DNA of 64,000 nt from Reyranella sp. (GTDB taxonomy: Bacteria; Pseudomonadota; Alphaproteobacteria; Reyranellales; Reyranellaceae): assembly GCF_004297405.1 (NCBI RefSeq), contig NZ_SCVC01000032.1:1-64000 (forward strand), in the 5' to 3' direction. The position numbers were made by a program, and so were the translations under genes. Below, one piece after another: positions 31,228 through 32,379 of this stretch (positions within the stretch are counted from its first letter, which is position 1; each line of letters opens with the position of its first letter). Below the pieces are notes generated by a model. The model did not search any database. It saw only the letters and a program-made list of their open reading frames with translations, and was not told the DNA's origin.

Positions 31228-31980
31228 TCAGCCGTCCCAGACGTTCGCGGGCATCGGCAGGCGTGCGAAATCGGCGTCGATCAGCGGGCGTTGAAAGGAC
31301 GCGCCTTCGCGTTCCAGCAGCATCATCCATTGCCGCACGTGCTGGCCGGAGTGCCAGGTGGTGCGCTCGAGCAATTCATGCAGGCTTTGCGCGCCATAGT
31401 AGGTGGCGAGCGATCGGGCCGGGTCGGTATCACCATCTGACCGCCAGGCGCGGAAGCGATCCCGTATGGCTGTACCGTATTCCACGAGAGCATCGCTGGC
31501 GGCATCGGGCGCCGGCTCTTCGCGGAACATCGCCTGCTCCAGGGTGAGGCCGCGCTCGGCATCGAGGAAGGCATCGACGACCTTGAAGAGGTGATAGGCG
31601 AGCGCGCGATAGCTGCGTGGCCGACCAGGCACATGGACGTGCAGGCGCTTCGCCGGCATCAGCGGCAGCAAGGCGATCGCCGCGCTCATGAACTTGTCGA
31701 GGCGCTGGGAGAGTTCGTCGGCCGAGAGGGCGGGGCCTGCCTTTTCGGTAAGCCCGAGGAACGCCACGATCTGCGGCAGGCTCTGGCCGAACACGAACTC
31801 CTTGCCGCGCGACAGCACCGGCACGGAACGCACGCCGAGCGCCTGCAGCTCGGCCAGGCCGGCCGGATCTTCGAGCACATTTATCGAAACGAAGTCGATC
31901 CCACGGACCGATAGAAACTCTTTGAGTCTCAGGCAGCTCGTTCAACCGGGCTGCCAGAAGACCTTCAATGGTTCCGTCAT
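31228..31980 (-). CDS. Glutaredoxin-DinB fusion, candidate selenoprotein (in-frame TGA)
   Basis: Read with TGA as an amino acid this is a 250-residue protein; the ORF track shows only the part after the TGA, from a GTG. The N-terminus is MTEPLKVFWQPG-TGA-TSCLRLKEFLSV. This is a glutaredoxin active site in which the first Cys of C-x-x-C is replaced by TGA (position 13), giving U-T-S-C. The thioredoxin-fold domain continues to about residue 80 (VRSVPVLSRG holds the cis-Pro). A DinB-like helical domain follows (about 90-240), with likely metal His in LAYHLF and ERTTWHSGQHVRQW. The ATG lies 15 bases after the upstream VOC stop. Sec decoding, a nonsense mutation or a base-call error remain possible; the intact flanking frame favours decoding. 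Confidence 0.6.
31895..31930 (-). promoter_or_regulatory. Candidate SECIS region: two hairpins after the in-frame TGA
   Basis: Two stem-loops lie inside the coding sequence just after the TGA, on the coding strand. The nearer is GAGACTC-AAA-GAGTTTC, seven pairs including one G-U, beginning 12 bases after the TGA. The second is TCGGTC-CGTGG-GATCGA, six pairs including one G-U, with a loop starting 37 bases after the TGA and a G at the second loop position. The second meets the published loose bacterial model (loop 16-37 bases away, G in the first two loop positions). Random hairpins are common, so this is supporting evidence only. Confidence 0.35.
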
Positions 31981-31995: not shown

Positions 31996-32379
31996 TCAGG
32001 GTTTCTTGTGGCAGACAACACAGATCTTGTTGCCGTCGAGGTCACGCACATAGGCACCGTAGTAGTCGGGATGATAGTGCGACCGGAGGCCGGGAGCACC
32101 TTCATCCTTCGCGCCGGCACTCATGGCTGCCTTGTAGGCGGCATCCACGGAGCCCCGATTGTCGGCTTCGAGGCCGATGGTGACGCCATTGCCGACCGAG
32201 GCCGCCTTCTGGTCGAGCGGGCTCAGCACCCAGAGCTGCGGCCGGCCGCCGGGACGGCCATATCCAGCGGCTGTCGGAAAGTCGAGATGACGTACCAGGC
32301 CGAGCGGCTTCAGCAGCTCGTCATAGAACGGCTTTGCCTTGGCGAGATCGTTGCTGCCGATCGTGACATGGCTGAACAT
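31996..32379 (-). CDS. VOC family (glyoxalase-fold) protein
   Basis: This 127-residue protein is a single vicinal-oxygen-chelate domain pair: MFSHVTIGSNDLAKAKPFYDE with the first metal His, and HYHPDYYGAYVRDLDGNKI with the final His and the Y-x-x-D-x-x-G-N pattern. AAGGAGAAA precedes the ATG. Members detoxify aldehydes, cleave rings or bind drugs; the substrate is unknown. The glutaredoxin-DinB gene starts 15 bases after its stop, so both are probably made together, perhaps for thiol or electrophile metabolism. Confidence 0.85.
   Translation of the reverse strand: MFSHVTIGSNDLAKAKPFYDELLKPLGLVRHLDFPTAAGYGRPGGRPQLWVLSPLDQKAASVGNGVTIGLEADNRGSVDAAYKAAMSAGAKDEGAPGLRSHYHPDYYGAYVRDLDGNKICVVCHKKP

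What the first reader, a model, noticed from the sequence alone, without database searches (positions are those of the whole stretch)
31228..31980. Candidate selenoprotein: glutaredoxin-DinB with UxxC active site
An in-frame TGA sits exactly where the first Cys of a glutaredoxin C-x-x-C is expected (PG-TGA-TSC). The frame is open for 12 codons before and 237 after it, the ATG is 15 bases downstream of the VOC stop, and the N-terminus matches the Cys-form family pattern (WQPGCTSC as I recall it). Without Sec the product is either 12 residues or a truncated protein lacking the active site. A UxxC glutaredoxin fused to a DinB (thiol-transferase-like) domain would be an unusual selenoprotein.
Basis: partly seen in the sequence, partly recalled or inferred. 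Interest (0 to 1): 0.85.

Follow-up and report, generated by a model that had tools for sequence, protein, structure and literature searches.

The report
Selenium-containing glutaredoxin fused to DinB domain
A bacterial gene that appears broken by a stop codon almost certainly encodes an intact enzyme with selenium in its active site, because dozens of related species keep the same stop codon followed by the RNA signal that inserts selenocysteine; this combination of protein domains was not found among catalogued selenoproteins.

Summary
The window lies in a Reyranella-type alphaproteobacterial genome that encodes selA, selB, tRNA-Sec (one cluster about 80 kb away, beside a Sec formate dehydrogenase) and selD. 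In 56 of 61 genomes of the genus the homologue carries exactly one in-frame stop, always TGA, always at the first position of U-T-S-C. Sec forms also occur in other Alphaproteobacteria, Acetobacteraceae and some Beta/Gammaproteobacteria MAGs. More distant homologues have TGC/TGT (Cys) there. From codon +4 to +17 after the TGA, synonymous codons are frozen on rare choices. This stretch holds a hairpin (UCGRUC-CGUGN-GAUCGA) with compensatory changes that fits the published bacterial SECIS model; Cys forms lack it. In one lineage the gene directly precedes selA-selB. The confident AlphaFold model (pLDDT 93) is a glutaredoxin domain plus a DinB/YfiT four-helix bundle with an invariant 3-His metal triad. 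A 2026 catalogue of 119 prokaryotic selenoprotein families lists UxxC Grx but no Grx-DinB. Verdict: a real selenoprotein, a new variant of the known UxxC-glutaredoxin kind. The most likely job is a selenol-assisted, glutathione-linked S-transferase or reductase; the substrate is unknown and nothing was tested at the bench.

The parts
31228..31980 (-). Selenoprotein gene: Grx-DinB fusion, 250 residues with U at position 13
31942..31944 (-). In-frame TGA read as selenocysteine (U13), first residue of U-T-S-C
   Evidence: TGA in 81 of 81 distinct Sec forms; TGC in 9 Cys forms
31933..31935 (-). Resolving Cys16 of UxxC
   Evidence: invariant in 39 of 39
31895..31911 (-). bSECIS core hairpin UCGGUC-CGUGG-GAUCGA, apical loop 36 nt after the UGA
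31914..31930 (-). Upstream hairpin GAGACUC-AAA-GAGUUUC, pairable in nearly all Reyranella and Acetobacteraceae Sec forms, shifted in register in the WQPH group; part of the frozen stretch, role uncertain
31756..31971 (-). Glutaredoxin domain (residues about 4-75)
   Evidence: Pfam PF00462; Foldseek 3zit TM 0.88, cGrx1 7c10 TM 0.88
31309..31722 (-). DinB/YfiT four-helix bundle (residues about 87-224)
   Evidence: Foldseek 6iz2 TM 0.80 to target, 1rxq YfiT, 2nsf mycothiol-dependent maleylpyruvate isomerase
31591..31593 (-). His130, predicted metal ligand
   Evidence: invariant in 39 of 39
31339..31353 (-). His210-x3-His214, predicted metal ligands
   Evidence: invariant in 39 of 39
31996..32379 (-). 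VOC (glyoxalase-fold) gene upstream, probable operon partner within Reyranella
   Evidence: PF00903; same strand upstream in 51 of 93 loci, 21 directly adjacent

Best explanation
The gene encodes a selenoprotein. SelB and Sec-tRNA-Sec read UGA codon 13 as selenocysteine under the direction of a bacterial SECIS hairpin 36 nt downstream, inside the coding sequence (strongly supported by comparison, not shown at the bench; I put this part at about 0.97). The 250-residue product is a glutaredoxin domain with a U-T-S-C active site fused to a DinB/YfiT-type metal-binding four-helix bundle. Inferred mechanism (about 0.4): the three-His metal site of the DinB domain binds a thiol or electrophilic substrate, as in the bacillithiol, mycothiol and glutathione S-transferases of that superfamily. 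Sec13 attacks the mixed disulfide, thiol adduct or oxidised thiol, Cys16 resolves the selenenylsulfide, and glutathione regenerates it, so one chain both handles and reduces or deglutathionylates the substrate. The substrate is unknown.
For: Machinery: selA (6.7e-158), selB (9.1e-138), tRNA-Sec (75.4 bits, gathering 47; ARAGORN tca anticodon), selD, and a second Sec gene, fdoG with TGA at C44:106591. Conservation: 56 of 61 genomes of the genus and one of another family carry a homologue with one in-frame TGA; 80 named loci gave further Sec forms in Acetobacteraceae, other Alpha, Beta and Gamma MAGs; Cys forms have TGC/TGT at that codon. In a class-wide sample 18 of 19 Sec-form genomes have Sec machinery (SelB over cut-off; SelA for G016; the exception is 77% complete) against 3 of 13 Cys-only genomes, Fisher p = 4e-5. 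Coding on both sides: dN/dS 0.12-0.32 over codons 84-250 in seven pairs; T-S-C after the TGA is almost invariant in amino acids with varying third bases. SECIS: codons +4 to +17 frozen on rare choices (AGA and CTA 1%, TTT 8%, CGT 81/81 against 9% background), lost in Cys forms; the hairpin pairs in 99.6% of cells with compensatory changes at 2 of 6 pairs and beats slid controls; MFE -8.1 to -9.3; all four criteria of the bSECIS model in PMC13188914 are met. Linkage: in L127 the gene is followed directly by selA and selB. Fold: pLDDT 93.4, pTM 0.89; the best-scoring PDB sequence relative is cGrx1 of C. oremlandii, itself a native selenoprotein. The H...HxxxH triad is invariant and is that of BstA (H67, H160, H164) in PMC5815605.
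Against: No protein or selenium measurement. Two incomplete MAGs of the genus (G019 89%, G040 60%) and G072 (77%) carry the TGA gene without detected Sec machinery, which assembly gaps can explain. MFE over the whole codon +1..+17 stretch is no lower than that of synonymous recodings (z -0.17); the excess appears only for +4..+17 (z -1.9). The DinB domain is weak by sequence in this member (below Pfam cut-off); its assignment rests on family members and the fold. The catalytic job, the metal and the glutathione dependence are inferred only, and the model's domain geometry could not be measured here.
Confidence: 0.9

Rival explanations
1. Nonsense mutation, pseudogene or sequencing error at codon 13.
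For: A single in-frame stop is what a fresh nonsense mutation or base error looks like.
Against: The same TGA stands in 57 genomes from separate assemblies and in 81 distinct sequences; the downstream frame is under purifying selection; no other stops; never TAG or TAA.
Confidence: 0.01
2. The TGA terminates a 12-residue leader and a separate protein starts downstream (for example the 216-aa GTG ORF at 31878), lacking the active site.
For: A mechanical ORF search gives that ORF.
Against: Residues 5-12 (first strand of the glutaredoxin fold) and 13-16 are kept as protein in Sec and Cys forms; Cys forms are continuous; synonymous third-base variation at codons +1 to +3 shows they are read as amino acids; the frozen codons and hairpin have no role in this reading.
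Confidence: 0.02
3. UGA is read through by a near-cognate tRNA or reassigned to a standard amino acid, without selenium.
For: Would also give a full-length product.
Against: TGA ends other genes here (the VOC gene and this gene itself); only Cys or Sec fits the site; no SECIS or Sec machinery would be needed, yet both track the TGA form.
Confidence: 0.02
4. A true selenoprotein whose glutaredoxin part has already been recorded among marine metagenome Grx or Grx-like UxxC fragments, so only the fused domain is unrecorded.
For: Sargasso and GOS surveys list UxxC Grx (10 and 2) and Grx-like (42) sequences from short reads (PMC1088965, PMC2398784); our family includes marine MAGs such as L127 and L138.
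Against: Those papers do not contain the word DinB, and the GOS paper reports several selenoprotein fusions but none of Grx with DinB; the 2026 catalogue and NCBIfam have no such entry. The reads themselves could not be compared here.
Confidence: 0.35

Closest known systems
Selenoprotein glutaredoxin (Grx, PF00462, UxxC), e.g. cGrx1 of Clostridium oremlandii (PDB 7c10)
   Same: Sec as the first residue of UxxC in a glutaredoxin fold; best-scoring PDB sequence relative (E 4.5e-11)
   Different: Single 84-residue domain from a Clostridium; here fused to a DinB bundle of about 165 residues, in Proteobacteria
DinB/YfiT S-transferase-like superfamily (BstA of B. subtilis, DR0053 of D. radiodurans, mycothiol-dependent maleylpyruvate isomerase)
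   Same: Four-helix bundle and H...HxxxH metal triad
   Different: No Sec is known in them to me; none of the DinB/YfiT structures matched carries a glutaredoxin domain
Uxx-star family (NF041212, NF041211, NF047338)
   Same: Glutaredoxin-like Sec proteins; weak NCBIfam matches (30.7 bits against a cut-off of 66)
   Different: Well below every cut-off; different Sec motifs (UxxT or GxGU in the review table) and no DinB domain
Cys-form Grx-DinB proteins annotated 'DinB family protein' or 'glutaredoxin domain-containing protein' (Roseomonas, Caballeronia, Variovorax, Rhizobium plasmids)
   Same: Same two-domain architecture over 98% of the length, 33-44% identity
   Different: Annotated as ordinary proteins; Cys forms examined here from other genomes lack the SECIS stretch. 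The plasmid copies' own codon was not inspected

Membership tests
Bacterial selenoprotein gene | In-frame TGA aligned with Cys of homologues | tested here: met
Bacterial selenoprotein gene | Genome encodes SelA, SelB, SelD and tRNA-Sec | tested here: met
Bacterial selenoprotein gene | bSECIS: 3-9 nt loop, 4-16 bp stem, G in the first two loop positions, 16-37 nt from UGA, MFE <= -7.5 | tested here: met
   loop CGUGG (or GUG), 6-7 bp, spacing 36-37, -8.1 kcal/mol; criteria
Bacterial selenoprotein gene | Full-length selenium-containing protein made in the cell | not testable with these tools
   needs 75Se labelling or mass spectrometry
Glutaredoxin (PF00462) | Score over the Pfam cut-off and glutaredoxin fold | tested here: met
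   41.1 bits against 22.9; TM 0.83-0.89 to several Grx-type structures
Glutaredoxin (PF00462) | GSH-dependent disulfide reduction | not testable with these tools
   no assay
DinB/S-transferase-like superfamily | Four-helix bundle with three metal-binding His | tested here: met
   triad as in BstA; ligand geometry itself not measured
DinB/S-transferase-like superfamily | Pfam DinB_2 or DinB over cut-off | tested here: inconclusive
   21.5 against 24.8 in this member; over cut-off in several relatives
DinB/S-transferase-like superfamily | Metal-dependent thiol transferase activity | not testable with these tools
   no assay
Uxx-star selenoprotein family | NCBIfam cut-off | tested here: not met
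   30.7 against 66, 25 against 97, 18.9 against 100

The most novel reading that the evidence does not exclude
A previously unrecorded selenoprotein family, widespread in Reyranella and patchy across Proteobacteria, in which a selenol glutaredoxin is built into a metal-dependent DinB thiol transferase. It would be the first Sec enzyme of that superfamily, and in some lineages it is encoded with selA and selB.
Probability: 0.6. Interest if true: 0.72.

Novelty: new variant of a known kind. Interest (0 to 1): 0.62.

Why it matters
It adds an architecture to the list of prokaryotic selenoproteins and shows a second Sec user beside formate dehydrogenase in this genome. A plain ORF search cuts it into a fragment without the active site. 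Cultured carriers (R. massiliensis, R. soli, R. aquatilis, Enhydrobacter aerosaccus) make it directly testable, and the naturally paired Sec and Cys forms (one genome, G365, holds both) allow a clean test of what selenium buys a glutaredoxin.

Tried and rejected
Rfam scan of the window: only a tRNA, no SECIS model hit. Folding UGA -12 to +60: mostly three small hairpins; the stem that encloses the UGA is not specific, since a Cys form also has it. MFE test over codons +1..+17: no signal, positive only for +4..+17. The first hairpin was considered as the SECIS but its AAA loop lacks the required G and it shifts register between lineages. The DinB-only profile against PDB sequences gave no confident hit; fold comparison was needed. 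Gene neighbours gave a VOC gene and a TctC gene in Reyranella only, nothing shared across other lineages. The 2011 paper on DinB-superfamily S-transferases is not held; I cite it only through PMC5815605.

Full report
Observation. On the minus strand the frame from ATG (31980) to the stop ending at 31228 is interrupted only by TGA at codon 13 (31944-31942), inside WQPG-TGA-TSC. Read as Sec, the product is a glutaredoxin domain (PF00462, 41.1 bits) followed by a DinB-like domain.

Genome. The window is C44:1-64000 of a 6.46 Mb, 98.8% complete assembly. The nearest named relatives are Reyranella (R. massiliensis 521 at 91% protein identity). The genome encodes selA, selB and tRNA-Sec in one stretch of C44 (111.7-116.2 kb) behind a formate dehydrogenase operon whose alpha subunit has its own Sec TGA, and selD elsewhere as an Ndh-SelD fusion with Cys.

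Conservation. Of 101 genomes searched, 57 hold the gene with one in-frame TGA: 56 of 61 in the genus and one from another family. Extracted sequences place the TGA at U-T-S-C every time, while the terminal stop varies. Two carriers in which selA was not found over the cut-off (G018, G050) do have SelB and tRNA-Sec, and G053, with only a partial selA, has both too; only incomplete MAGs lack all. The genome collection adds Sec forms in Acetobacteraceae, a WQPH-U group of Alpha, Beta and Gamma MAGs, and Cys forms with TGC or TGT. In a class-wide sample, 18 of 19 Sec-form genomes have Sec machinery against 3 of 13 Cys-only genomes (Fisher p 4e-5). G365 holds one of each form. A tree of 79 proteins needs 3 changes between Sec and Cys (bootstrap 3-4), so the trait is strongly clustered; weak deep branches do not rule out a single origin.

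Recoding signal. In 81 distinct Sec forms, codons +4 to +17 are held on choices rare elsewhere in the same genes (AGA 1%, CTA 1%, TTT 8%, CGT 9%, GGG 11%), and Cys forms lose this. Between relatives dS is depressed there (0-0.29, against 0.5-1.0 in codons 84-250), while dN/dS in codons 84-250 is 0.12-0.32. The stretch contains UCGRUC-CGUGN-GAUCGA: 6 bp, loop with G-U at positions 2-3, 36 nt from the UGA, -8.1 to -9.3 kcal/mol. On 45 diverse sequences 99.6% of cells pair, two pairs show changes on both sides (U-A to C-G in L168, L170 and L171; U-A to G-C in L156), and slid controls fall to 9-60%; RNAalifold finds the same helix unprompted. This meets the published bSECIS criteria (PMC13188914). 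The FdhA Sec site of the same genome has a comparable hairpin with G-U in its apical loop. The exact motif occurs once in the genome, at this gene.

Protein. AlphaFold on 39 family members gives pLDDT 93.4, pTM 0.89. Foldseek matches the N-terminal domain to glutaredoxins and the C-terminal domain to DinB/YfiT proteins, including YfiT and mycothiol-dependent maleylpyruvate isomerase. U/C13, Cys16, His130, His210 and His214 are invariant. PMC5815605 reports that eight B. subtilis enzymes of this superfamily are bacillithiol transferases whose only fully conserved residues are three His (H67, H160, H164 in BstA).

Context. In Reyranella a VOC gene lies upstream on the same strand in 51 loci, with other genes between in many. 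In Filomicrobium MED665 (L127) the gene is followed directly by selA and selB, and in G114 SelB lies about 7 kb away.

What it does. Shown by computation: Sec coding, SECIS, the two folds, the conserved residues. Inferred: a Sec13/Cys16 redox pair served by glutathione acting with a metal-bound substrate in the DinB domain. The substrate is not known.

Novelty. A 2026 catalogue of 119 prokaryotic selenoprotein families includes Grx (UxxC) but no Grx-DinB. Text searches for selenoprotein with DinB found nothing relevant, the deep-Sep and Secmarker papers do not mention it, and no NCBIfam selenoprotein model reaches its cut-off on the window protein (members). Earlier marine surveys list UxxC Grx-like fragments that could include its first domain. 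I therefore call it a new variant of a known kind.

Noticed in passing
L127:5001-9193: Grx-DinB, selA and selB follow one another on one strand in a marine Filomicrobium MAG: a Sec user encoded with its own insertion machinery.
   Followed up: partly
G000:C30:53295-54218 (L146): SelD is fused to an NADH-dehydrogenase-like domain and has Cys, not Sec, at its active site.
   Followed up: partly
window:34766-38347 (-): One 1193-residue ABC exporter whose halves match CydD and CydC (thiol reductant exporter), a single-chain CydDC-like protein, a few genes upstream of the finding.
   Followed up: no
G365:C24:4426-5184 and C25:5256-6005: One genome carries both a Sec and a Cys form of the protein.
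   Followed up: no
G256:C228: A Cys-form Grx-DinB lies about 15 kb from selB, perhaps a Sec-to-Cys replacement.
   Followed up: no
L122-L132, L138, L139, L141: A group of Sec forms has His instead of Gly before the Sec (WQPH-U-TSC); the reason is unknown.
   Followed up: no
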